Assembly (NCBI RefSeq): GCF_900637635.1
Contig: NZ_LR134383.1
Span: 516,501-580,500, forward strand
Direction of reading: 5' to 3'
DNA: 64,000 bases
Source of the DNA: Legionella jordanis
Lineage (GTDB): Bacteria; Pseudomonadota; Gammaproteobacteria; Legionellales; Legionellaceae
This document shows, in pieces, positions 11,678 through 28,415 of the stretch (its first letter is position 1; each line of letters begins with the position of its first letter). The translations under genes were made by a program, and so were the position numbers. The notes under the pieces are model-generated. The model searched no databases and was not told the origin of the DNA. It worked only from the letters and a program-made list of their open reading frames with translations.

Positions 11678-12219
11678 AAAAGTTCACTTCCTGGATTGCT
11701 GTTCTTATGTTAAGCATCATCGGCATGGCATTTCTTTTCATGCTGATGGGCTTTCGCGTGAACACCACAGATTCCATTCCTTTTGGCCTTTATCGCATTA
11801 CAAATATAAAAAACATCAAAAATTCCTATGTGATTTTTTGCCCCGATGATCGACCGGCTTTTAAACAGGGATTAGATAGAGGCTATATCGGAAGTGGCCT
11901 TTGCCCTGGCGGTTATGGGTATTTAATGAAAAAAGTGGTGGCAACAAATGGTGATCAAATATCTATCACCTCCGACGGCGTTTTTGTTAATCGCCAACTT
12001 ATTCTCTTTTCAAAACCGACATTAATAGATGGAAGGAAACGACCTTTGCCTCAATGGCGCACTATAGATTATCAGATCAAAGAAGATGAACTCATAACTA
12101 TGACTAGCCAAAGCGAATGGTCTTTTGATAGTCGTTATTATGGCCCTATTCGTATAGGGCAAGTGAAGGGAGTGATTAAACCCATATGGGTAAATGCAAC
12201 AAGTGGAGAAATAGCATGA
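11674..12219 (+). CDS. traF: TraF-like signal-peptidase-family pilin maturation protease
   Basis: S26-family peptidase, 181 aa, related to RP4 TraF, which processes and cyclises the TrbC pilin. There is one N-terminal membrane anchor (residues 7-27). The catalytic Ser is in DSIPFGLY (Ser34) and the general-base Lys is in LMKKVVATNGD (about Lys86). The protein lacks the large insertions of housekeeping LepB. It overlaps traG and the next small gene by 4 bp. Confidence 0.93.
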   Translation: MKKFTSWIAVLMLSIIGMAFLFMLMGFRVNTTDSIPFGLYRITNIKNIKNSYVIFCPDDRPAFKQGLDRGYIGSGLCPGGYGYLMKKVVATNGDQISITSDGVFVNRQLILFSKPTLIDGRKRPLPQWRTIDYQIKEDELITMTSQSEWSFDSRYYGPIRIGQVKGVIKPIWVNATSGEIA

Positions 12220-14657: not shown

Positions 14658-14697
14658 GGTAATCCCCCCATTTTTAACTGACACTAAAAGTAGAAAC

Positions 14698-15489
14698 CTA
14701 GGCTGCTAGAGCCAATTTTCTTTTGGGTGGTATACCTCCAATAGCCGAGTTAGGACGTTCATTGTTATAAGACCAAAGCCACTTGGTGGCCTGTTCCTGG
14801 ACTTGTTCAATACTCTCAAATAAGTATTGATTAAGCCAGTCATACCGAACAGTACGATTATAGCGCTCAATATAGGCATTTTGCTGCGGACAACCTGGCT
14901 GAATGAATACAAGCTCAATATCGTGATTTTTAGCCCATCTTGCGAGCTTATGGCTTACGTATTCAGGCCCATTATCACAACGTATCTGCTTAGGCTTGCC
15001 TCGCCATTCAATGACTTGCTCCAGTGTCCGGATGACTCGGGCAGAAGGCAATGAAAAATCCGCTTCGATTGTCAGGCCTTCCCGGTTAAAGTCATCAATA
15101 ATATTCAGTAGCCGATAACAGCGTCCATTATCCAGTTGATCATGCATAAAATCCATTGACCAGCACTGGTTGCTTGATGTTGGCACGGCCAGGGACTCAG
15201 GCTTTTCCCTGATTAACCGTTTTTTGGGTTTTATCCGTAAATTTAACTCGAGCTCTTTGTATACACGGTAAACACGTTTGTGATTCCAACAAAAACCTTT
15301 CACGTTGCGCAAATATAAAAAACACAAGCCAAATCCCCAGTTACGGTTGTTTTGAGTTAAGCGCATTAGCCAATCCGCTATGACCCTGTTTTCTTCATTC
15401 AGTTTGGGTTCATAACGGTAGCACGTCTCACTGATGCTAAATAACCAGCAAGCCATCCTGACTTCAATATTCCGTTCCCGCACTATCAC
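14698..15489 (-). CDS. IS3-family transposase OrfB (copy 1)
   Basis: 263-aa catalytic half of the transposase with the rve integrase core. DDE residues are visible in [18 protein letters not shown] and [10 protein letters not shown]. In IS3 elements OrfB is normally made as an OrfAB fusion through a -1 shift; an A-rich slippery run lies at the end of orfA, and the OrfB frame continues upstream of the nominal GTG with KPSARRELA, which supports fusion. Protein sequence is identical to the copy at 27584. Confidence 0.93.
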
Positions 15490-15521
15490 GCGCGCAAGCT
15501 CTCGGCGAGCGGATGGCTTTT

Positions 15522-15785
15522 TTACTTTTTTTCAAGCACCTCTTTTAAAATTTCTGACTTTAAGCGCTCTTCAGCGTACATCTTCTTTAAGCGGCTATTC
15601 TCTGCTTCAAGTTCCTTTAGCCGAGCCATCATTGGAAGATCCATGCCTCCATACTTGGCTCGCCAGTTATAGAATGTCGCATTGCTTATACCATGCTCTC
15701 GACATAAATCTGGAACTGCAACACCACTTTGAGCTTGCTTCAATATCGACAGGATTTGGCTGTCACTAAATTTTGATTTCTTCAT
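15522..15785 (-). CDS. IS3-family transposase OrfA (copy 1)
   Basis: 87-aa helix-turn-helix protein starting [11 protein letters not shown], with the HTH region [18 protein letters not shown] and a C-terminal leucine-zipper segment typical of IS3-family OrfA. A longer start 51 bp upstream is possible, but the ATG at 15785 has an AAGGAG site. It ends at an A-rich shift site before orfB. Confidence 0.93.
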
Positions 15786-15990
15786 GCAGAATCTCCTTGC
15801 ACATACATTACGAGAAAATTCTACTTTTGGCATCAACTATTTTGTGGGCGGATTACCTCTGCACCCATACAATATGGGAATGGTAAATAGTTTTCTAATT
15901 TTATTATTTGTTTTCTTTATTCTGAATCAGATAAGGGAAAGCCTTAATGCAGACACTGGCAATAACTCCCAATTTGATGAGGAACATATC

Positions 15991-16314
15991 ATGTTATCTA
16001 TTGATTCTGTTAAAAAACAAGCTCAAGTGCTTAAATCCTTCCTGGACGAAAAATTTGGTGATGTTTCACACTCATCCTGTCTACAAGCCATTGCAAAAAT
16101 AAATGGTTATAAAGATTGGAATACAATGCAGTCAATTATAAAAAATAACAGTGGGGTTGATATGTCTGATGATATAGCAGAAAGATTGGAAAGCTTGGAG
16201 TTTTACGTACAGGAATTAGCTAAAGATGTTGATAAAATTCAAGCTAAGGTTGATGAGCACGACCCATATATTCTAGAACTACAAGGTGTTCACCCTTGGA
16301 ATCCGCCAGATTAA
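15991..16314 (+). CDS. Small helical protein with HSxxLxAIAxxxGYKDWNT motif
   Basis: 107 aa from ATG 15991 (GAGGAA upstream). The first half, KKQAQVLKSFLDEKF followed by SHSSCLQAIAKINGYKDWNT, matches a small helical domain often found on plasmids and at the N terminus of so-called glyoxalase-superfamily proteins; its role is not known to me. The second half is a coiled-coil-like segment. The frame stays open upstream into the IS and could add one membrane helix from ATG 15874. The last codons, including the stop, lie in a 23-bp copy of an IS481-type end, so the native C terminus has probably been replaced. Confidence 0.6.
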   Translation: MLSIDSVKKQAQVLKSFLDEKFGDVSHSSCLQAIAKINGYKDWNTMQSIIKNNSGVDMSDDIAERLESLEFYVQELAKDVDKIQAKVDEHDPYILELQGVHPWNPPD

Positions 16315-16329
16315 GTCGAAACTAATTCA
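16307..16329 (-). repeat. Solo 23-bp IS481-type right end
   Basis: These 23 bp are identical to the right end of the intact IS481-type element (19459-19481); on the minus strand the terminus begins TGAATTAGTTTCG. It is joined directly to AATAAGG (16330-16336), the complement of CCTTATT, which is also found next to the opposite IS481-type end at 23685. It marks where an IS481-type element once entered an IS982 element. The rest of that copy is gone at this edge. Confidence 0.85.
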
Positions 16330-16521
16330 AATAAGGCGACATTTCTTTAAACCATGCCTTGCAAAAATCATCAATATCACAGAATATTTCTACTATCGGT
16401 GCTAACATCTTATTTCCTTTCATAATTCAGGCGTGAATTTTAAAGAAACAAAATGTATATAGCACCGATAATTTTTTCAATAATTCAATGACATAACCTT
16501 ATTCTTATATCGAGCTGAGGT
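16322..16521 (-). pseudogene. IS982-family transposase, N-terminal fragment with left IR
   Basis: On the minus strand, ATG at 16408 opens a peptide MLAPIVEIFCDIDDFCKAW followed by FKEMSPYL, the typical start of IS982-family transposases. It then runs into an IS481-type end and stops. Upstream, at about 16503-16521, is the terminal repeat ACCTCAGCTCGATATAAG, nearly the same as the right end of the IS982 fragment at 24493-24510. Joining this piece to the fragment at 23685 across the shared CCTTATT restores one reading frame (MSPYL then LPSPNRKRQR). An inverted repeat TATCGGTGCTA/TAGCACCGATA lies in the leader. Confidence 0.85.
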
Positions 16522-16534
16522 TAATTTATTATTT

Positions 16535-17674
16535 TTATGCAATTTCATCCAATACATTCATTGAATCTGAACGCTCTTTGATCTGCTTGGCAGCTTTCTT
16601 CACGATGTCATCTATTAAATTATTTAATGTTTGTTTAATCCATTGTGTAACCCAAACAATTGAAGGTATTGCAATACATACAAAAGTACCCCATCTTTTT
16701 ACATCTAGATAACTACATATAAGCCCAAATATAAACATACCTATTAAGACAATGTTTTTAAATGATTCACGTTTTTCTTGTTTTTCTATAGAAATTATCA
16801 CTGGATCTTCCAGTTTAGAAGCAGCAGCATTTTTGATTTCATCATCAAAAAACTCATCTTTCGAGGTTGAAATCTTTTTTCTCAGGTCAAAGTAATAAAA
16901 ATCACTACGATTAAGCAAAATAACTGCCAATTTTTTAGGCAAGAGTTTCATTAAATCTTCAAAAAGAGTTTCTTCCAAAAAAAATGCATATGTTGGCAAA
17001 GACCAGACTAGATATCGTGCTAGTTTAGTCTCACCAAGTTTTGGAACAAGTTTCCACAGAGCTTCTAGATTTCTTGCATAAAGATATTCAGTGTAACCAT
17101 CTTCAGAAAAAGAGTCATCTAATTTATCTTTATTAAAATTATGTGCTAATTCTCCTATTAAATTAGCAAGATGCTTTTGGTCAATCTGATTATTAAATCC
17201 CCATTCAATTATTGCAGCGATTTCTTCTCCATCCCTAACACTTAGCATACTGAAATATAAAATTTGTTCAGCAGGATGCATGGAAAAAAAATTTTCTGGA
17301 TTTAGAACTAATATATCATGACCATCTTTGTTTTTTTCACGCACATGAATTTCTTTACTAGGGCAATGAGTAAATTTAACGATAATGCATTTATCATTTG
17401 ATATTTTTTCAAGTCTTTCCTTATCAACCTCAGTTTGTTGTTCTAAATTTGACGAACAAAAAAAACGTTCAGCACATAAATAACGAACATAATCATTTGG
17501 ACTGTCCAAACCTTTAGATATTACTTCATCAGGGATATAAACATCTGTACTCAAAATTTTAATGTGCGTTTCAATTGAAAGACCATCCCAGGCAGCAACC
17601 AATTTTAGTTGGCTACTTAACCTGTGTTGAGTTAGTTCTTGTAGATATGTCTCTAGCTGAATTTCAGAGTTCAT
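16535..17674 (-). CDS. Unrecognised 379-aa membrane-associated protein
   Basis: I do not recognise this protein. It is Lys/Glu-rich and looks soluble and helical for about 300 residues, with no clear catalytic motif. Two hydrophobic segments (about residues 305-322 and 328-347) form a hairpin near the C terminus, followed by an amphipathic tail, so it is probably anchored at the inner membrane with a large cytoplasmic domain. It is a single gene between traM and the IS982 remnant, AT-rich compared with the tra genes, and probably cargo. A regulator remnant lies upstream. Confidence 0.7.
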   Translation of the reverse strand: MNSEIQLETYLQELTQHRLSSQLKLVAAWDGLSIETHIKILSTDVYIPDEVISKGLDSPNDYVRYLCAERFFCSSNLEQQTEVDKERLEKISNDKCIIVKFTHCPSKEIHVREKNKDGHDILVLNPENFFSMHPAEQILYFSMLSVRDGEEIAAIIEWGFNNQIDQKHLANLIGELAHNFNKDKLDDSFSEDGYTEYLYARNLEALWKLVPKLGETKLARYLVWSLPTYAFFLEETLFEDLMKLLPKKLAVILLNRSDFYYFDLRKKISTSKDEFFDDEIKNAAASKLEDPVIISIEKQEKRESFKNIVLIGMFIFGLICSYLDVKRWGTFVCIAIPSIVWVTQWIKQTLNNLIDDIVKKAAKQIKERSDSMNVLDEIA

Positions 17675-17762
17675 CTTATCTCCAGTTTAATAGGTCGTTG
17701 CCCCTCCTTTTTTGATTCTTATAGTCCTTGCCATATAATCATAAGACACGTATTCTATATGA

Positions 17763-17834
17763 ATGCACAAAAAACATCCAACTTTAATTCAGCTTGGCGA
17801 AAAAATTAGAGACTTACGTAAAGCACTAGACTAA
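17763..17834 (+). pseudogene. Remnant of a Cro/CI-type regulator N terminus
   Basis: A 23-codon frame, M then HKKHPTLIQLGEKIRDLRKALD, has the first-helix signature of XRE-family repressors (LGxKIRxLRK) and then hits TAA where the recognition helix should follow. The downstream bases do not continue the fold in any frame. It is divergent from the 379-aa gene, where a regulator would be expected, so it may be the stump of that gene's controller. Confidence 0.5.
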
Positions 17835-18245
17835 TTTAGTCTTCATCAGTAGTTACTTATTATCAACTCTGGAGATTTACTTGGCAATGATCTTAAGTTG
17901 ACTAATGAACCAATATGTTCCATAGCTTCGTCTGCTTCTGGTATTAAATTTTTGCCACTTTTTTTGAGATATTAGCTATATAAAATACGATCTTATTTCA
18001 ATGATAAGGCTCAATGAATATAACTAATATAAATCCAACAGGGTATTTTGGGATAGGGTGATTGGTGATAAAAGCCATCAATTTTTGTATGGATGTTAAG
18101 AGAGCCATTCTAAATTTAGAATTGGTACATTTACTTTTGATTCCTGCCATTCCAGTTTTCAACTCAGAATCACTGCAACTGGAGCAGTTCTTAAATAAGC
18201 TTTGGCCTTATCAAAACACATTTGCAAATACTTACTAAGAAACAG
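17835..18245 (+). other. Non-coding or decayed stretch with one short frame
   Basis: About 400 bp with no recognised gene. One frame, 18089-18238 (49 aa from ATG, MDVKRAILNLELVHLLLIPA...), has no visible family and no ribosome site. The right part carries the original 3' end of traM (stop TAG at 18246-18248) displaced by the IS. Confidence 0.4.
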
Positions 18246-18282
18246 CTACCCTATAACATATATGAAAAATAACGACATAAAC

Positions 18283-19481
18283 TGTAGTAGTTCCAACTTG
18301 ATCTGACAGTTACCGGTTTTTAAGAAGTGTCTGTCAGGTCAAATTTAGTTTATAAATTTTTCCATCCAGATTTGTTTAGCCTCTATCAAAGTTTGCATTG
18401 GAGTACGTCCACAACACATTTTACCCTGATGAGTACGTTGATTATTATAGTAATCCATCCATTCGTCCAGATCTTTTTGCAATTCATCGATTGATTCGTA
18501 AATTTTCTTTCGGAATGTTACTTGATAAAACTCCTGTAAAATCGTTTTATGAAAACGTTCACAAATCCCATTTGTTTGGGGTGAATTTGCTTTTGTCTTT
18601 GTATGGTCAATGTTATTAATTGCCAAATAAAGCTGATAATCATGCTGTTCTACCTTGCCACAATATTCAGTACCCCTATCTGTTAAAATACGCAGTATAG
18701 GTAAATCGTGTTGTTCGAAGAAGGGTAAAACCTTATCGTTCAGTAAATCTGCTGAAGTAATTGGCGTTTTAGTCGTATAAAGCTTGGCAAATGCCACTTT
18801 ACTATAGGTATCAACAAAAGTTTGCTGATAAATGCGACCGACTCCTTTAAGCGTACCCACATAAAAAGTATCTTGCGAGCCGAGGTAACCAGGATGTGCT
18901 GTTTCGATTTCACCACATGCCTCATCATCAAATTTCTTTTTCTCCAAAGCTACGACCTGCGCTTCCGTCAATATAATTCCTTCAGAAGCTACTTTAGCCT
19001 CTAATGCTTTTAAGCGGTCTTTAAAATTGGCAAGCTCATATCGCAGCCAAATGCTACGAACTCCACTTGGAGAAACAAAAATACCCCGTTTACGAAGCTC
19101 ATTGCTCGTACGAAGCTGACCATGGGCTGGAAATGCGATCGCATACTCCCTTACCGAGAGTTCAATTGCTTCTTCTACTCTATTTTTTAGATTAGGTTTT
19201 CTTCGGCTTTGATCGAATAAAGCATCAACTCCTCCCGATTCTACTGCCGACTTATAGCGATAAAATGTATCTCTGGATAAGCCCATTACTTTACATGCCT
19301 TAGATACATTCCCTAATTCTTCAGCAAGGTTTAATAAGCCAACTTTATGTTTAATAATTTTAACTGTATTATCTATCATGAGAGTTTTCCTTTTGGTTTT
19401 GTTTCAAGTTCGCACTTCTATCAAAACCGGAAACTCTCTCTTTTTCAAGTACTTGTGTCAGATTAAGTCGAAACTAATTCA
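18283..19481 (-). mobile_element. IS481-family element inserted in traM
   Basis: A 1199-bp element. Left end TGTAGTAGTTCCAACTTG and right end (complement) TGAATTAGTTTCGACTTA match at about 21 of the first 26 positions. It is flanked by a perfect 7-bp duplication CATAAAC (18276-18282 and 19482-19488). It carries a single transposase gene on the minus strand. Insertion separated the last nine codons of traM from the gene. Two further IS481-type ends occur at 16307 and 23609. Confidence 0.93.
18345..19379 (-). CDS. IS481-family transposase
   Basis: 344 aa. An N-terminal helix-turn-helix region (GNVSKACKVMGLSRDTFYRY) is followed by an rve integrase core with DDE-type residues in QTFVDTYSKVAFA, LTDRGTEYCG and NGICERFHKTI. 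The length is normal and no frameshift is seen, so it could be active. The stop lies 62 bp inside the left terminal repeat. Confidence 0.93.
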   Translation of the reverse strand: MIDNTVKIIKHKVGLLNLAEELGNVSKACKVMGLSRDTFYRYKSAVESGGVDALFDQSRRKPNLKNRVEEAIELSVREYAIAFPAHGQLRTSNELRKRGIFVSPSGVRSIWLRYELANFKDRLKALEAKVASEGIILTEAQVVALEKKKFDDEACGEIETAHPGYLGSQDTFYVGTLKGVGRIYQQTFVDTYSKVAFAKLYTTKTPITSADLLNDKVLPFFEQHDLPILRILTDRGTEYCGKVEQHDYQLYLAINNIDHTKTKANSPQTNGICERFHKTILQEFYQVTFRKKIYESIDELQKDLDEWMDYYNNQRTHQGKMCCGRTPMQTLIEAKQIWMEKFIN

Positions 19482-19901
19482 CATAAACAAACAAGTTACA
19501 GTCAGCATTGCAAACAATGATAACAATGCTAATTGATTTCTTGTCCGTGTCTGGTGAGTCAAATCACGCGCCTCCATCAACGCATCTGATATCAGATTTC
19601 TCATGATGAGAACGGATTCATTGGTTGCCTCCCCCAGCATTTTGTTCATGGCTTCTTTACTACTAGCCAATGCAGCATTAAGTACTTTCTCAGCTTTGTC
19701 TTTAGCATCAACCTTCCATTGAGAGGAAATGCTCTCCATTTCCTCTTTGAACTGAGTCAGCATTTCCTGTTGTGCTTTTCGATTTTCCTCAAGCAGCCTG
19801 TCATTCATGGTTTGGAGGATAAGAACTGGATCATCTCTACCCAGAACAACACCATGCTTGCCTGCAATGTCTTGAATAGCTTCATTAATTTTCTCTGACA
19901 T
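19479..19901 (-). CDS. traM: TraM-like conjugation protein, 3' end replaced by IS
   Basis: 140 aa as read now. The segment KHGVVLGRDDPVLILQTMNDRLL matches the IncP TraM N terminus; a long coiled coil follows and then a C-terminal membrane helix (LALLSLFAMLTVTCLFM). The present stop TGA is the first three bases of the IS481-type end. Removing the IS and one CATAAAC copy restores SLFFIYVIG and a TAG at 18246-18248, so the original protein was 149 aa. TraM enhances transfer in RP4. It overlaps traL at an ATG/TAA-type junction. Confidence 0.85.
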   Translation of the reverse strand: MSEKINEAIQDIAGKHGVVLGRDDPVLILQTMNDRLLEENRKAQQEMLTQFKEEMESISSQWKVDAKDKAEKVLNAALASSKEAMNKMLGEATNESVLIMRNLISDALMEARDLTHQTRTRNQLALLSLFAMLTVTCLFM

Positions 19902-20626
19902 TAGATCACCATGGCGTTATCAATCTGGCTGAATAGTTGATCCCGTATCAGCTTTAATCGCTGCCTGGTCATAATATTTCGCTCAGGGGAATCGATTGCC
20001 TCATTAAATGTAATTTTTTGTTGAAGCATATTTGAGAGATCATGGCCGAAAGTTTCTTCCTTTAAATCAGGAATATTGATTATTGCTGCGATTCGATCTT
20101 TGGTCTCTTTGTATACCTTCATTTGCTCAAAAGGTTTTCCTTCACTCTCAACCTTTCCCCAATAGGGATTTAGCCACACAACATAGCGAACATCTCCTGG
20201 AAATTGATTTACCAGCTGAGCAAAGCCATTTATTGTGTCCAGTAACGCTTGACCACCAGTGATAACGGTATGGATGATAAGTTCATGCCCCATGTCTTTT
20301 AACAAGGTGGGCACTTGGTTGGTGATGAGATAATGCGATAAAGGCACAAAAGAACTGGCGCCATTATCAATAATCACGTCATTTTGTGTATTTGCAATTT
20401 TTTCAATTAAGGTGTCAAAATGGCGCGGATTGATTTCATCGCCTTCCATAATATTCAGGCGTTCGACATTAAGTGACTTAAAGCCATGAAAGGTGGCGTT
20501 AATGGGATCGGTATCAATACAAAGTGGGGATTGTGCTTTATTAAGCTTGTACTGAGCGGTAGTTGCCGAGACAAAGGATTTACCGACACCGCCTTTGCCC
20601 TGCATCGTGATATGTATTTTTGCCAT
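19901..20626 (-). CDS. traL: TraL-like ParA/MinD-family ATPase
   Basis: 241 aa with a deviant Walker A QGKGGVGKSFVS at the N terminus and the ParA-type Asp motif CIDTDP. RP4 TraL is the same kind of ATPase encoded between traK and traM, and the order here is identical. The substrate in conjugation is not well defined. Start and stop each share one base with the neighbouring gene, which indicates tight coupling. Confidence 0.9.
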   Translation of the reverse strand: MAKIHITMQGKGGVGKSFVSATTAQYKLNKAQSPLCIDTDPINATFHGFKSLNVERLNIMEGDEINPRHFDTLIEKIANTQNDVIIDNGASSFVPLSHYLITNQVPTLLKDMGHELIIHTVITGGQALLDTINGFAQLVNQFPGDVRYVVWLNPYWGKVESEGKPFEQMKVYKETKDRIAAIINIPDLKEETFGHDLSNMLQQKITFNEAIDSPERNIMTRQRLKLIRDQLFSQIDNAMVI

Positions 20627-20952
20627 TACAAGAGTTCCTCCGGGTTGGGTATTGGATTAAAAGTAAAACCTTTGATTTCATTGGTAGTTTTACTTTTGCT
20701 TTGTTTATCATCCCTGATGTTTTCCTGCTCTGACTTAATTAACTTAAGTACGTAATGCCTAAATGCCTTGTAGCCGAATGAAATTTGTCCTTCATCAGAT
20801 AAAGTTTCCCAAACAGCTTTCATCGAACAGCCCTTATCAAGGGCTTCTCGAATGTCTTCTTTCAGTGCGATAAATTGAATCTTGGCATTGGTTCGCCCGT
20901 TCTTTTTTTCTGACTGATTTTGGATTACCCGTTCGGAAAGTGGCTTTTTCAT
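20626..20952 (-). CDS. traK: TraK-like oriT-binding protein
   Basis: 108 aa, basic N terminus (KKPLSERV..KKNGRTNAKIQF), then the conserved segment IREALDKGCSMKAVWETLSDEGQISFGYKAFRHYV as in IncP TraK. TraK wraps oriT DNA on the side of its own gene and exposes the nick site. It is first in the traKLM operon, divergent from traJ across oriT, as in RP4. Confidence 0.9.
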   Translation of the reverse strand: MKKPLSERVIQNQSEKKNGRTNAKIQFIALKEDIREALDKGCSMKAVWETLSDEGQISFGYKAFRHYVLKLIKSEQENIRDDKQSKSKTTNEIKGFTFNPIPNPEELL

Positions 20953-21000
20953 TCTTCTTTGGTGTCAATTTTTATTATTTAAAAAGTCTAAATCATAATT

Positions 21001-21170
21001 AGGATTTGAACAAGAAAAAAGGAATATTTTAGAACTATTAAGAATTTACTAGAATATAAAAATGAGTATTTGAGCATTATAAAAGAACTTTTAGGAAAAA
21101 TTTGGATTATTATAGTTCTATAGGCAAAAAAATTCTTTAAAAATCGTTGCAAGTTCTAAAAAGTTCCTGA
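21001..21170. promoter_or_regulatory. Cluster of GAAC/GTTC half-sites between traK and oriT
   Basis: This AT-rich stretch repeats the core AGAAC or GTTCT at about 21031, 21084, 21114, 21152 and 21161, several inside short palindromes (AAAGAACTTTT, TATAGTTCTATA). The location corresponds to the TraK-binding and promoter region of RP4 oriT. The sites could bind TraK or a repressor of the divergent operons. This is inference from position and repetition. Confidence 0.4.
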
Positions 21171-21184
21171 TATGATTCTTTAAA

Positions 21185-21292
21185 GTGATCTGGAAAAGCA
21201 GGGCAAGATAGGTGAAGTTAGCTATCCAGCAAGCTGGCTATCAATCTTCACAAACCTTATTCGCACCTTCGGTGCTCAACGGGTATCTTGCT
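21185..21292 (-). other. IncP-like origin of transfer (oriT)
   Basis: Read on the minus strand the region follows RP4 oriT order: CCCGTTGAGCACCG, then AGGTGCGAATAAGG, then GTGAAGA, then an inverted repeat (GCCAGC TT GCTGG), then CTTCACCTATCTTGCCC. The last segment corresponds to the RP4 nick region CACCTATCCTG/CCC, with a single C-to-T change before TG. The nick is expected on the minus strand at about 21203-21205. It lies between divergent traK and traJ. The match is to remembered RP4 sequence and was not aligned by software. Confidence 0.88.
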
Positions 21293-21367
21293 TTTTGAAA
21301 TCAAAAAGAAAACAATTAATCAGTACCTAAAGGATTGCAAACCACTTGTTAAGAGGTCAGCATCCTT

Positions 21368-21721
21368 ATGGATGATAAGAATAAACTACCTACCAGAAAA
21401 CACAGCCGCCACCTACGTGTTCCCGTTCTTCCCGATGAAGAAATTGCAATTAAATCCCATGCCGCCCAAGCAGGACTTTCTGTTGCCGAATATTTACGTC
21501 GGATTGGGTTGGGCTATCAAATCCAAAGTGCCATTGATAAGGATTATATTCTCCAGTTATCCAAAATAAATGCAGACATGGGAAGGCTCGGCGGTCTGTT
21601 TAAGCTCTGGCTTACCCAGGATAGACGTGTCGCATATTTTGATCATCGAAGGATTAAAGCTTTGTTGGATCGCATTCAAACAACGCAGGATGCAATGTTT
21701 GAAGTGGTGAAAAAATTATGA
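21368..21721 (+). CDS. traJ: TraJ-like relaxosome accessory protein
   Basis: 117 aa, ribbon-helix-helix type oriT-binding protein. RKHSRHLRVPVLPDEEIAIKSHAAQAGLSVAEYLRRIGLGY is the characteristic N-terminal fold of IncP TraJ and MobC-like proteins. TraJ binds the inverted repeat beside nic and recruits TraI. ATG 21368 is used; its stop overlaps traI by 4 bp. Confidence 0.92.
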   Translation: MDDKNKLPTRKHSRHLRVPVLPDEEIAIKSHAAQAGLSVAEYLRRIGLGYQIQSAIDKDYILQLSKINADMGRLGGLFKLWLTQDRRVAYFDHRRIKALLDRIQTTQDAMFEVVKKL

Positions 21722-23601
21722 TTATTCGCCATATCCCAATGAAGTCAGCAAGACTAAGCAGCTATTCAGCTCTGGTAAAATACATTACTGATGAACAAAA
21801 TAAACAGGAACGAGTAGGTAAAGTCAGGATATCAAACTGTAAGAGTGTTGATCTTACATGGGCTATTCATGAAGTATTGGCAACTCAGGCGAGAAACCAA
21901 AGAGCTAAAAGCGATAAAACCTACCACATGCTCATATCTTTTGCCCCAGGGGAAAATCCCTCCAACGAGGTATTGAAAGCTATAGAGGAAAGTGTCGTAT
22001 CATCTATTGGATTCAAAGATCATCAAAGGATTAGCGCTATTCATCACGACACAGACAACCTTCATATTCATGTTGCCATCAATAAAATTCATCCAAAAAC
22101 ATTTAACATGATTGAGCCGTATAGAGCTTATAGGGCTTTTGCAGATGTGGCATCGAAACTGGAAATTGAGTATGGTCTTGAAATAACCAATCATCGAACC
22201 CGAAAAAGTCGTTCAGAGAATCTTGCTGATGATATGGAACAACATTCTGGCATTGAAAGCTTGATTAACTGGATAAAGAGAAATTGTCTGGAACAGATTA
22301 ACCAGGCCAACCATTGGAATGAGGTTCATAAAATCCTATTCCTTCATGGCTTGGAAATTCATATTAAAGCTAATGGTCTGGTCTTTTGTAATGAGGTAGG
22401 ACTTATGGTTAAGGCAAGCTCAGTTTCACGATGCTTTTCCAAAAAGAACCTGGAATCCAGGTTGGGTGAATTTAAGCCCTCACCATTTCGTACTGAAAGA
22501 TCCGGGCAAAATATTTATCGTTATGAACCACTAAATAGGAAAGTGATCGGTTCAGAAATTTATGCGCGTTACCTACATGAAAAAGAACATGGCAAAACGT
22601 TGCTTGCCGAGAAACTCAAACATCTGCGTGAAGCTAAAGCCAGACTGATTACGAAAGCCAAGAAACTTGGTCGAACCAAACGAGCAGTTTTGAAGTTAAT
22701 GAAAGCCCCGAGGACTCAAAAAAAATATCTTTACCAGCAAATCAGCAAAACCCTTTTGAAAGAAATTGAAAAAGTTCGCCAAAATTATGCCAAAGAACGA
22801 AAGCATCTTCTTGAATTACATAAAAACAAAACCTGGGCTGATTGGTTGCAGCAAAAAGCTCTGGAAGGAGACAAAGAAGCCTTAACAGCTATGCGTTATC
22901 ACAATCGAAAAAATCAAAGTAATTATTCCTTATCTGCTGTGTCATCTAATTTTTCCTTAGCTGATATTAAGCAAGTTGATTCCATTACTAAAGAGGGAAC
23001 AGAGATATATAAAATGGATAAGGCGGTCATCAGAAACACCGGCAAGGAAATTAAAATTTCTAAGGGCGGCTCTATTGCTACACTGAAAAAAGCCATTGAG
23101 ATGGCACAGCAGAGATACGGCAACTGTATCCAGGTAAATGGCTCGCCACTTTTTAAAAAGATCATTCTTCAAATAACCATCCAGCATAATATCCCGATCA
23201 CCTTTGCTGATTCAGAAATGGAAGCACAGCGCCAAAAAATGGTCTTAGAACAGGAGAGACGCTATGAGCAATCAAGACGATACAGATTTAATGATGGAGG
23301 AAGAACTCCAAGAAGCAATGAAGCTGCTGGAGCAGTCATTGGAAAAAGAGGAACACTTTCCAGTACGAAGCCCAACGCTGACAGCATTAGACAAGGCCCG
23401 CCAGCCAAAAGTCAAAACAGCTTGCGAGACTTGTCCCAACTCGATATGGTTCAGCTCGCCAGAAGAAGTAAAGTGTTATTGCCGGATAATGCACATGATC
23501 AGCTGGAGCGGCAAGGACTCCAACCTGATAACCATGTGCGACGGAAAATTTTTGGACTAAAGCCGAATAGGAAAATCGATAAAGGCAGATCAATCTTTTA
23601 A
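21718..23601 (+). CDS. traI: TraI-like relaxase (MOBP)
   Basis: 627 aa relaxase that nicks oriT and stays linked to the 5' end of the transferred strand. Motif I holds Tyr22 (ALVKYITDEQ), the same number as the RP4 catalytic Tyr22. Motif III IHHDTDNLHIHV gives His116 and His118, again as in RP4. The middle is basic and helical; the C-terminal third carries an LPD7-like segment (EIKISKGGSIATLKKAIEMAQQRYG). The last third overlaps a second gene in another frame (23264-23560). Confidence 0.95.
   Translation: MIIRHIPMKSARLSSYSALVKYITDEQNKQERVGKVRISNCKSVDLTWAIHEVLATQARNQRAKSDKTYHMLISFAPGENPSNEVLKAIEESVVSSIGFKDHQRISAIHHDTDNLHIHVAINKIHPKTFNMIEPYRAYRAFADVASKLEIEYGLEITNHRTRKSRSENLADDMEQHSGIESLINWIKRNCLEQINQANHWNEVHKILFLHGLEIHIKANGLVFCNEVGLMVKASSVSRCFSKKNLESRLGEFKPSPFRTERSGQNIYRYEPLNRKVIGSEIYARYLHEKEHGKTLLAEKLKHLREAKARLITKAKKLGRTKRAVLKLMKAPRTQKKYLYQQISKTLLKEIEKVRQNYAKERKHLLELHKNKTWADWLQQKALEGDKEALTAMRYHNRKNQSNYSLSAVSSNFSLADIKQVDSITKEGTEIYKMDKAVIRNTGKEIKISKGGSIATLKKAIEMAQQRYGNCIQVNGSPLFKKIILQITIQHNIPITFADSEMEAQRQKMVLEQERRYEQSRRYRFNDGGRTPRSNEAAGAVIGKRGTLSSTKPNADSIRQGPPAKSQNSLRDLSQLDMVQLARRSKVLLPDNAHDQLERQGLQPDNHVRRKIFGLKPNRKIDKGRSIF
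23264..23560 (+). CDS. Small Cys-rich protein nested out of frame in traI
   Basis: 98-aa frame lying wholly inside the 3' part of traI. It has its own ribosome site (GGAG 8 bp before ATG). The protein is non-random: an acidic helical N terminus (LMMEEELQEAMKLLEQSLEKE) followed by a Cys-rich module CETCPNSIW...CYCRIMHMISW...CDG that could bind metal. RP4 traH also lies within traI in another frame, so this may be its positional counterpart. I cannot assign a function. Confidence 0.7.
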   Translation: MSNQDDTDLMMEEELQEAMKLLEQSLEKEEHFPVRSPTLTALDKARQPKVKTACETCPNSIWFSSPEEVKCYCRIMHMISWSGKDSNLITMCDGKFLD

Positions 23602-23608
23602 TTTTATA

Positions 23609-23684
23609 TGTAGTAGTTCAAATTTGACCTGACAGACACTTCTTGAAAAACCAGTAACTGTCAGATCAAGTTTGAACTACTACA
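23609..23684. repeat. 76-bp palindromic IS481-derived remnant (MITE-like)
   Basis: Starts TGTAGTAGTTCAAATTTG and ends with the complement (CAAGTTTGAACTACTACA), so the ends form an inverted repeat. Read on the minus strand, its first 60 or so bases match the left end of the intact IS481-type element at 18283 with a few changes. It directly abuts CCTTATT and the IS982 transposase fragment. No target duplication flanks the 76 bp itself, so it is probably a deletion derivative. Confidence 0.8.
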
Positions 23685-24510
23685 CCTTATTTACTTCCAT
23701 CACCGAATCGCAAAAGACAACGCTCTTGTAGGCTGTCAGTCAGTGAAATCATGACGGTCATGATTTTATTTCATCTCAGCCATTATCGAACCTTTAAAGA
23801 CTATTATCGTGAATGCGTGGAGATGGATATGAAATCGTATTTTCCGAAACTTGTCAGTTATAATCGGTTCGTAGAAATCATGTTATCCGTAGTGACGCCT
23901 TTATCACCCTATTTGCTGTCGCATATGGGGAAGAAGACAGGGCTGTATTATGTTGATTCAACCACCATGAAAGTATGTCATAACAAGCGTATTCATCGCC
24001 ATAAAACATTTGCTGGAATAGCGGAACGTGGCAAATCCTCAATGGGCTGGTTTTTCGGCTTTAAGCTCCATCTTGTGATTAATCATCTTGGTGAATTAAT
24101 TGCTTTTTGCATAACAAAAGGCAATGTGGATGACCGTCAACCACTAGAGCAGCTTTTCAAAAACCTCCATGGTCTTGCCGTAGCTGATAAGGGGTATCTT
24201 TCAAAGAAAAAAGAGGAAAGCCTTTTCCAGAAAGGACTTAAGCTTATCACAAAGGTACGCAGAAACATGAAGGCCAAAATACTCTCAACTTTTGAAAAAT
24301 ATTTCCTCGGACAACGCAGCAGCGTTGAAACAGTTATTGAGCAATTAAAATCAATTTGCCAAATTGAACATACCAGACATCGTAAACCGGATAATTTTGT
24401 CATTAACCTTTTATCCGGCTTAGCTGCTATATATGCTCAAACCGAGAAAACCTTCCCTCAAAATCTATTCCCTTAATGAAAATTTAGGCTTGCTTATGTC
24501 GAGCTGAGGT
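23685..24510 (+). pseudogene. IS982-family transposase, C-terminal fragment with right IR
   Basis: From CCTTATT the open frame reads YLLPSPNRKRQRSCRLSVSEIM and then the full DDE domain (YYVDSTTMKVCHNKR, KGNVDDRQPLEQL, VADKGYLSKK, SSVETVIEQLKSI), ending at 24476. It lacks the first 25 or so residues, which lie at 16332-16408 in opposite orientation. The element ends at about 24510 with GTCGAGCTGAGGT, the partner of the repeat near 16521. An internal ATG at 23751 would give 241 aa, but without the N terminus activity is unlikely. Confidence 0.88.
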
Positions 24511-24890
24511 TAGATAGATTAGCTCATTCTACCCAGCATTTATTGGAGTTTGTAGAACGAATAAGAATAGCCGAATCTTCGTTTTTCTCGCTTTCTGAGC
24601 CATGGGCAGATACAACCTCTCATGCTGGTAAAATGATCATGATGGTATTTGCAGGAATTGCTGAATTTGAGCGTGATTTAATTCGTGAGCGTACTTCGGC
24701 GGGGCGTTTAGCAGCTAAACAACGTGGAGTTCGAATTGGACGCCCCAAAAAAATGAATGAAGAACAAAAATTGTTAGCAAAGCGATTATTGGAAGAAAAT
24801 AAATCAGTCACTGAGATTGCCAAAACTTTTAATGTCCATAAAGCAACTATTTACCGACTTTCAGAATCTATTATATGCAATGAAATTTAA
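24510..24890 (+). pseudogene. Tn3-type serine resolvase, C-terminal fragment
   Basis: About 126 residues of a serine recombinase, LDRLAHSTQHLLEFVERI...SLSEPWADTTSHAGKM...GIAEFERDLIRERTSAGR followed by GRPKK and a C-terminal helix-turn-helix (SVTEIAKTFNVHKATIYRL). The catalytic Ser and first 65 or so residues are absent; the frame enters directly from the IS982 end. Its stop overlaps the converging methyltransferase by 4 bp. Not functional as a recombinase. Confidence 0.85.
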
Positions 24891-27215: not shown

Positions 27216-27287
27216 GGTAATCCGCCCACAAAATAGTTGATGCCAAAAGTAGAATTTTCTCGTAATGTATGTGCAAGGAGATTCTGC

Positions 27288-27551
27288 ATGAAGAAATCAA
27301 AATTTAGTGACAGCCAAATCCTGTCGATATTGAAGCAAGCTCAAAGTGGTGTTGCAGTTCCAGATTTATGTCGAGAGCATGGTATAAGCAATGCGACATT
27401 CTATAACTGGCGAGCCAAGTATGGAGGCATGGATCTTCCAATGATGGCTCGGCTAAAGGAACTTGAAGCAGAGAATAGCCGCTTAAAGAAGATGTACGCT
27501 GAAGAGCGCTTAAAGTCAGAAATTTTAAAAGAGGTGCTTGAAAAAAAGTAA
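27288..27551 (+). CDS. IS3-family transposase OrfA (copy 2)
   Basis: 87 aa, same predicted protein as copy 1 OrfA. ATG 27288 has AAGGAG upstream. The gene ends in LEKK at an A-rich run (GAAAAAAAG) that can serve as the -1 shift site into orfB. Confidence 0.93.
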
Positions 27552-27583
27552 AAAAGCCATCCGCTCGCCGAGAGCTTGCGCGC

Positions 27584-28375
27584 GTGATAGTGCGGGAACG
27601 GAATATTGAAGTCAGGATGGCTTGCTGGTTATTTAGCATCAGTGAGACGTGCTACCGTTATGAACCCAAACTGAATGAAGAAAACAGGGTCATAGCGGAT
27701 TGGCTAATGCGCTTAACTCAAAACAACCGTAACTGGGGATTTGGCTTGTGTTTTTTATATTTGCGCAACGTGAAAGGTTTTTGTTGGAATCACAAACGTG
27801 TTTACCGTGTATACAAAGAGCTCGAGTTAAATTTACGGATAAAACCCAAAAAACGGTTAATCAGGGAAAAGCCTGAGTCCCTGGCCGTGCCAACATCAAG
27901 CAACCAGTGCTGGTCAATGGATTTTATGCATGATCAACTGGATAATGGACGCTGTTATCGGCTACTGAATATTATTGATGACTTTAACCGGGAAGGCCTG
28001 ACAATCGAAGCGGATTTTTCATTGCCTTCTGCCCGAGTCATCCGGACACTGGAGCAAGTCATTGAATGGCGAGGCAAGCCTAAGCAGATACGTTGTGATA
28101 ATGGGCCTGAATACGTAAGCCATAAGCTCGCAAGATGGGCTAAAAATCACGATATTGAGCTTGTATTCATTCAGCCAGGTTGTCCGCAGCAAAATGCCTA
28201 TATTGAGCGCTATAATCGTACTGTTCGGTATGACTGGCTTAATCAATACTTATTTGAGAGTATTGAACAAGTCCAGGAACAGGCCACCAAGTGGCTTTGG
28301 TCTTATAACAATGAACGTCCTAACTCGGCTATTGGAGGTATACCACCCAAAAGAAAATTGGCTCTAGCAGCCTAG
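27584..28375 (+). CDS. IS3-family transposase OrfB (copy 2)
   Basis: 263 aa, DDE integrase domain, identical in sequence to the copy 1 protein. The frame is open upstream of the GTG ([11 protein letters not shown]), consistent with production as an OrfAB fusion. Nothing in the gene suggests inactivation. Confidence 0.93.
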
Positions 28376-28415
28376 GTTTCTACTTTTAGTGTCAGTTAAA
28401 AATGGGGGGATTACC

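What the first reader, a model, noticed from the sequence alone, without database searches (positions are those of the whole stretch)
16307..24510. One IS982 gene split into two oppositely oriented halves by a lost IS481-type insertion
The start of an IS982-family transposase (minus strand, ATG 16408) ends at a 23-bp IS481-type end; the rest of the same gene (plus strand from 23685) begins at the other IS481-type end. Both broken edges carry the same 7-bp sequence CCTTATT, and joining them gives one continuous frame (..MSPYL + LPSPNRKRQR..). So an IS481-type element inserted into an IS982 element with a 7-bp duplication, and the 7-kb block with traMLK-oriT-traJI now lies between the halves in a way that requires an inversion or equivalent exchange.
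Basis: seen in the sequence. Interest (0 to 1): 0.72.

Follow-up and report, generated by a model that had tools for sequence, protein, structure and literature searches.

The report
Insertion-sequence-linked inversion of transfer genes
In a Legionella-type chromosome, the DNA-transfer start region of a conjugative element has been flipped, leaving one jumping gene split into two halves that point opposite ways; it is a clear but fairly ordinary case of mobile elements rearranging a genome.

Summary
A 26-codon start of an IS982 transposase (minus strand, 16331-16408) and its remainder (plus strand, from 23685) match residues 1-26 and 26-272 of an intact 297-aa relative. Each broken edge has the same 7-mer beside an IS481-type end. 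All 7 full IS481 copies in this genome (5 distinct sites) have 7-bp duplications, so an IS481-type element probably once sat inside the IS982.

The inversion is shown by comparison. A 97-98% identical element in Legionella norrlandica has traI-traM in the opposite orientation, next to the ORF that here ends at 16314. In 44 of 44 same-contig pairs from 36 genomes of the family, traG and the traMLKJI block lie on opposite strands; here they share a strand.

Two refinements. Eight of the 23 bp of the left "IS481 end" are also the end of a native ORF, and L. norrlandica has a 19/23 end-like sequence there; so one breakpoint was perhaps a resident end-like sequence, not a second IS481. The right edge is a 76-bp near-perfect hairpin, not a plain IS end. 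The kinds of event are known; the route is inferred. The halves were never joined, as the organism is Legionella kin.

The parts
15784..16314 (+). ORF 'A' (Glyoxalase_8-type match), native left neighbour of the transfer block; its last codons supply the CAGATTAA shared with the IS481 right end. As listed, its start lies inside the IS3 element that ends at 15857
   Evidence: 3' end conserved in G086, G142, G108, G076, G095
16307..16329 (+). 23 bp identical to the IS481 right end (inner side left, tip right); left inversion junction
16330..16336 (.). AATAAGG, one copy of the 7-bp target duplication
16330..16523 (-). 5' part of the IS982 element, including its outer inverted repeat (16504-16523) and the first 26 codons of the transposase (16331-16408)
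16330..23608 (.). segment inverted relative to relatives: IS982 5' part, cargo, resident IS481, traM-traL-traK-oriT-traJ-traI (the orientation of the tra genes was compared; the rest follows from the junctions)
16524..18282 (.). cargo 'B' that followed traM before the inversion; holds ORF 16535-17674 (379 aa, no Pfam or NCBIfam match at E 0.001)
18283..19481 (-). resident intact IS481-family element, 1199 bp, duplication CATAAAC on both sides, transposase 18345-19379; inserted near the 3' end of traM; one of 7 full copies in the genome
19479..20952 (-). traM (3' end interrupted by the IS481), traL and traK candidates (Pfam TraM activator, ArsA-type ATPase, DUF5338; the names traL and traK follow annotated plasmid relatives)
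21199..21281 (.). conserved stretch between traK and traJ, taken as part of oriT from its position
   Evidence: query 1716-1798
21368..23601 (+). traJ (NikA-like) and traI relaxase (627 aa)
   Evidence: match over residues 1-627 in L. norrlandica
23609..23684 (.). 76-bp near-perfect hairpin: IS481 left end of about 65 bp plus an inverted 11-bp copy of its tip; right inversion junction
23685..23691 (.). CCTTATT, other copy of the 7-bp target duplication
23685..24512 (+). remainder of the IS982 element: transposase residues 26 onward and the other outer inverted repeat (24493-24512)
24513..24890 (+). 5'-truncated serine recombinase abutting the IS982 end; a DNA search with the L. adelaidensis gene did not find its N-terminal part elsewhere in the genome

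Best explanation
The window holds an IncP-type (trb/tra) conjugative element in the chromosome. Its ancestral order, as in L. norrlandica, was: trb/traG genes, ORF A, a short end-like sequence, then traI-traJ-oriT-traK-traL-traM facing back toward traG. Downstream of traM this lineage carried cargo and an IS982 element, and an IS481-type element had inserted into the IS982 transposase gene with a 7-bp duplication. A crossover between the RE of that IS481 and the end-like sequence between A and traI, which lay in inverted orientation, then flipped the segment from traI to the 5' part of IS982. This put the IS982 start next to A in reverse and left traI next to the IS481 body. The body was later deleted, leaving an LE whose inner half and tip form a 76-bp hairpin, perhaps made more perfect by template switching. 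Another IS481 copy, of a second subtype, landed in traM. Shown: the two IS982 pieces, the 7-mer, the IS ends, the inversion and its polarity. Inferred: the crossover route, the loss of the IS481 body, template switching, and the order of events. Effect, inferred: the transfer block stays together but oriT direction relative to trb/traG is reversed. The confidence below is for the insertion followed by inversion; the crossover route alone I put at about 0.5.
For: Both halves match one intact family with abutting residue ranges and have one location each. IS481 ends have correct polarity at both edges; 7 of 7 full copies carry 7-bp duplications, at 5 distinct sites because L008, L009 and L010 share their flanks (L005 was off by one base and was recounted). 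L. norrlandica (G086) has A joined directly to the traI 3' end with the block reversed. 44 of 44 traG/tra-block pairs in 36 genomes lie on opposite strands, 43 of 44 with traI facing traG. The native G086 junction is 19/23 identical to the RE; the next best site in 32.8 kb of that contig, both strands, scores 15, and the best of 20,000 base shuffles of the 36-bp native stretch scored 17. The IS481-like tip at traI starts at the same base as in G086. Hairpin energy -22 kcal/mol with DNA parameters, z -7.8.
Against: Of the 7 other genomes with an ORF A match, only G086 was seen with A next to traI; 4 of the others have other sequence after the stop and two, with partial matches, were not resolved. 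No second genome of the species was searched. 8 of the 19 shared bases are conserved coding sequence; over the other 15 the match is 11 of 15, a score found 8 times in the 32.8-kb contig stretch, this site included. A 23-bp imperfect match is short for ordinary homologous recombination (recalled). The tip at traI equals the IS481 LE over 11 bases and differs from the G086 tip at 3 of them, so a further change must be assumed. No exact duplication surrounds the IS982 (AATAAAT / GATAGAT, 5 of 7), and the recombinase at 24513 lacks its N-terminal part, so the IS982 site probably had at least one further event. No relative examined shows the intermediate steps. L. norrlandica has no match to this IS481 at E 1e-10.
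Confidence: 0.8

Rival explanations
1. Rival for the route only: the IS481 transposase made the inversion, by intramolecular replicative transposition from the IS982-borne copy into the A-traI gap, which duplicates the element and inverts the segment; both copies were later eroded.
For: IS481-type ends lie at both junctions; 7 identical full copies suggest recent activity.
Against: This predicts an RE tip at the traI junction; the tip there equals the LE over 11 bases. An end-like sequence already exists in the uninverted G086. No shared target duplication is seen between the two junctions.
Confidence: 0.2
2. Rival for the route only: homologous recombination between two full inverted IS481 copies, one in IS982 and one between A and traI, as in Bordetella pertussis; both hybrid copies later mostly deleted.
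For: IS481 lies at most inversion boundaries in B. pertussis (PMC4888882, passages read). MAG locus L101 shows, by eye, an IS481-like tip after its traI 3' end.
Against: G086 has only a 23-bp end-like sequence at the site and no IS481 match at E 1e-10. Needs two near-complete deletions.
Confidence: 0.2
3. Recombination between the two identical inverted IS3 copies (14658-15857 and about 27216-28415) flipped the region.
For: The copies are 100% identical over 1200 bp and inverted, flanking the block.
Against: ORF A is still joined to its native left neighbour across the left IS3, with TCTG on both sides; the A-traI break is at 16307-16336, not at an IS3.
Confidence: 0.03
4. The 76-bp hairpin is an independent miniature element (MITE), not the remains of an IS481 in IS982.
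For: It has matching tips at both ends and the size of a MITE.
Against: At E 0.001 in 22 genus genomes no other copy over the full 76 bp was listed; one weak 73% match over 1-74 in G021 was not examined. Flanking 7-mers TTTTATA and CCTTATT differ.
Confidence: 0.07
5. The inversion is an assembly error.
For: The genome carries several identical IS copies; reads were not available.
Against: The genome is one contig, completeness 100. The junction remnants are only 23 and 76 bp, short for an assembler to confuse (inference), and each joined part has one location in the genome.
Confidence: 0.04

Closest known systems
IS481-linked inversions in Bordetella pertussis (PMC4888882; passages read)
   Same: Inversions with IS481 elements at the boundaries.
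   Different: There the boundaries carry IS481 elements; here no intact element remains at either edge and the uninverted relative has only a 23-bp end-like sequence at one.
Legionella trb/tra genomic islands (Glockner et al. 2008, seen only as a reference and in passages of PMC3864950)
   Same: IncP-like trb and tra genes on an island (by title; the paper was not read).
   Different: 44 of 44 comparable pairs tested here have traG and traMLKJI on opposite strands; the window has them on the same strand.
IS982-family element of G006 (unnamed same-genus genome)
   Same: Inverted repeats and transposase; 75-77% identical over the right piece and 23/26 over the left.
   Different: In one piece there; split and partly inverted here.
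Quasipalindrome template-switch mutation (PMC7202029; abstract and start of introduction read)
   Same: Imperfect inverted repeats become more perfect.
   Different: Here inferred from one sequence; no intermediate seen.

Membership tests
IS982 family | Transposase matching NCBIfam NF033520 | tested here: met
   Right piece 247.7 bits against a cut-off of 130; intact relative 255.4 bits. The 26-aa left piece was compared only with the relative
IS982 family | Terminal inverted repeats at both outer ends | tested here: met
   16504-16523 and 24493-24512 agree in 19 of 20 bases (95%); same strand now because one half is inverted
IS982 family | Target duplication around the element | tested here: inconclusive
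   AATAAAT and GATAGAT, 5 of 7
IS481 family (resident element 18283-19481) | Transposase matching NCBIfam NF033577 | tested here: met
   284.6 bits against a cut-off of 224
IS481 family (resident element 18283-19481) | Constant-length target duplication | tested here: met
   7 bp in 7 of 7 copies, 5 distinct sites
IS481 family (lost element in IS982) | Both ends and a duplication of the same length | tested here: met
   RE and LE in correct polarity with AATAAGG / CCTTATT
IS481 family (lost element in IS982) | A transposase gene of its own | tested here: not met
   No IS481 body remains at either edge; inferred lost
Inversion by recombination between two inverted IS copies | Inverted IS copies at both boundaries in the ancestor | tested here: inconclusive
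   The one comparable relative, G086, shows only a 23-bp end-like sequence at one boundary; the true ancestor is not available
IncP-type trb/tra conjugative element | TrbE, TraG, TraI-type relaxase, TraM, TraK-like and TraJ-like proteins | tested here: met
IncP-type trb/tra conjugative element | Excision and transfer | not testable with these tools
   sequence only; integration site and ends were not worked out

The most novel reading that the evidence does not exclude
The IS481 machinery can act on a chance or relic 23-bp end-like sequence next to the relaxase gene, using it as a partner site to invert the oriT-relaxase block of a conjugative element; gene order of conjugative modules could then be switched by any resident IS481 without a second copy.
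Probability: 0.15. Interest if true: 0.5.

Novelty: new member of a known kind. Interest (0 to 1): 0.33.

Why it matters
It gives a layered record of how nested insertion sequences remodel a conjugative element: insertion, inversion, loss of the inserted element, and further insertions. In 44 comparable pairs from 36 genomes the transfer block has the other orientation, so the window's state is unusual; it reverses the direction of oriT relative to the rest of the element while keeping the block together. It also warns that the IS involved may vanish, so that only a split gene and a 7-bp repeat tell the story.

Tried and rejected
Plasmid records: near matches only to an IS481, an IS3 and a recombinase gene (3 records), none for 16523-18282, and tra blocks at low identity or coverage (366 records, none with one place covering 80%). 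The 20 listed plasmid hits of the ORF A region lie on the IS3 element. The cargo has partial matches in 7 other genomes of 143; beyond the best of them, in G016, I saw nothing like the IS982 or its other flank, which settles nothing. The G135 IS481 copy with the same 7-mer on both sides is not inside an IS982. IS3-mediated inversion was rejected. The end-like sequence was sought from 60 bp before to 300 bp after the traI end in 23 loci (L049/L104 and L050/L100 are the same places, L055/L103 look the same): 19/23 only in L. norrlandica, 13-15 elsewhere. With the L. adelaidensis gene the missing N-terminal part of the recombinase gave only a 20-bp match elsewhere in the genome. Paper searches on IS911 and end-like targets, inversions in Legionella elements, L. 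norrlandica transfer regions, IS481 duplications in Legionella, IS481 inversions, trb/tra in Legionella, and mobilizable elements: no listed title is about this event; one search listed a single paper. Titles beyond the lists were not seen, and most subscription journals are not held.

The count of IS481 insertion sites was lowered to 5 distinct ones. The status of one membership row (two inverted IS copies) was changed from not met to inconclusive.
Full report
Setting. The window is bases 516501-580500 of a single-contig 3.13-Mb genome. The left part of the window carries IncP-type trb/tra genes (TrbE, TraG), and 19479-23601 carries traM, traL, traK, oriT, traJ and traI (the names traL, traK and oriT rest on position and on annotated plasmid relatives).

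Observation. The minus-strand piece 16330-16523 holds the outer inverted repeat of an IS982 element and the first 26 transposase codons. The plus-strand piece 23685-24512 holds the rest. Searched apart, they match residues 1-26 (23 of 26 identical) and 26-272 (189 of 247) of an intact 297-aa protein from G006, and their DNA maps side by side on three G006 copies, each of which abuts a contig end. In the search of 22 genus genomes, 3 had a match to the right piece: the window's own, G006 and G012. Each half has one location in the window's genome (one search also lists a weak match of the left piece to its own opposite strand). The right piece passes the NCBIfam IS982 model.

IS481 ends. The resident IS481 (18283-19481, 1199 bp) has six further full copies in the genome. 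All 7 have 7-bp direct repeats; three share their flanks, so these are 5 distinct sites (one copy was off by one base there and was recounted). At the left broken edge lies the 23-bp RE followed by AATAAGG; at the right edge lies an LE next to CCTTATT. That is the layout expected of an IS481-type insertion in IS982 with a 7-bp duplication, cut apart later. The LE at the right edge is 95% identical to the resident copies, which are 100% identical to each other, so the lost element was probably another subtype.

Inversion. The block is thus reversed there and traI touches ORF A. For a wider count I paired rows: of 57 traG rows, one is the window and five are further pieces; of the 51 left, 7 had no tra block on the contig; of the remaining 44 pairs in 36 genomes, 44 have opposite strands and 43 have traI facing traG. 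Five pairs lie more than 20 kb apart.

Junctions. The native L. norrlandica junction carries a 23-bp stretch 19/23 identical to the IS481 RE, with its tip toward traI. Its first 8 bases are the end of ORF A and are conserved in G142, G108, G076 and G095, which have other sequence after the stop. The remaining 15 bases match 11 of 15; that alone is not rare (8 such places in 32.8 kb, this one included). As a whole, 19 of 23 is the top score in that stretch, the next is 15, and 20,000 base shuffles of the 36-bp native stretch reached at most 17. In the window, the left junction is ORF A running into the RE and IS982; the right junction is the traI end, with the tip at the same base as in L. norrlandica, running into an IS481 LE. 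Orientation fits a crossover between the end-like sequence and the RE of the IS481 in IS982: they would have faced each other across the segment. A transposase-made replicative inversion would put an RE tip at traI, whereas the 11-bp tip there equals the LE. That same tip differs from the L. norrlandica one at 3 of 11 bases, which the crossover model must explain by a later change.

Hairpin. The right junction is a 76-bp near-perfect inverted repeat (fold -22 kcal/mol with DNA parameters, z -7.8). Resident and foreign IS481 copies share up to 65 bp of it but none listed shares the last 11 bp. The likely origin is deletion of the IS481 body followed by template switching that completed the palindrome; this class of mutation is described in PMC7202029 (abstract and start of introduction read). 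This step is inferred.

Further events. Another IS481 copy sits near the 3' end of traM, whose product is 140 aa against 150 in L. norrlandica. An IS3 entered left of ORF A with a 4-bp duplication; a second identical, inverted IS3 copy lies near 27216-28415.

What is not explained. The outer flanks of the IS982 do not form an exact duplication. The serine recombinase right of it lacks about 62 N-terminal codons compared with the L. adelaidensis gene, and a DNA search did not find them elsewhere in the genome. The IS982 site therefore probably had at least one further deletion or exchange.

Function. traI (627 aa) matches L. norrlandica over its whole length and the oriT stretch is conserved. 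The likely effect is a reversal of oriT direction relative to trb/traG with the relaxosome genes kept together; the interruption of traM is separate. Whether transfer is affected was not tested.

Verdict. This is a new case of a known kind of event.

Noticed in passing
window 21199-21281; L113-L120: An 80-88-bp stretch of the oriT region recurs as copies without tra genes beside them in 16 listed rows (84-93% identity); three lie 13-31 kb from a tra block on the same contig (G009, G080, G101). Of 8 fetched, 8 sit beside a 526-600-aa ORF (split in L118); DUF927 in 4 of 4 loci tested. 8 of 8 have a 120-131-aa ORF nearby (about 1 kb off in L115); TraK-like DUF5338 in 2 of 3 tested. Of 3 wider contexts, only partly scanned, 2 have a phage-type integrase and 1 has AbiE genes. 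They look like mobilizable islands riding on trb/tra elements.
   Followed up: partly
window 14658-15857 and about 27216-28415: Two 100% identical IS3-family copies in inverted orientation flank the whole region; the left one has a TCTG duplication, the right one has no matching duplication by eye.
   Followed up: partly
window 18276-19488: The resident IS481 interrupts the 3' end of traM, shortening the product to 140 aa against 150 in L. norrlandica.
   Followed up: yes
window 24513-24890: Serine recombinase gene truncated at the IS982 end; its N-terminal part was not found in the genome by a DNA search.
   Followed up: partly
window 16394-16470, minus strand: The IS982 transposase start lies in a strong hairpin (140-nt stretch, -22 kcal/mol with DNA parameters, z -5.3); as RNA it might limit translation, which was not tested.
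   Followed up: no
L101, just after the traI end (match ends at 11839): In a Legionella MAG an IS481-like tip, seen by eye, also lies just after traI, so this spot may be hit repeatedly.
   Followed up: no
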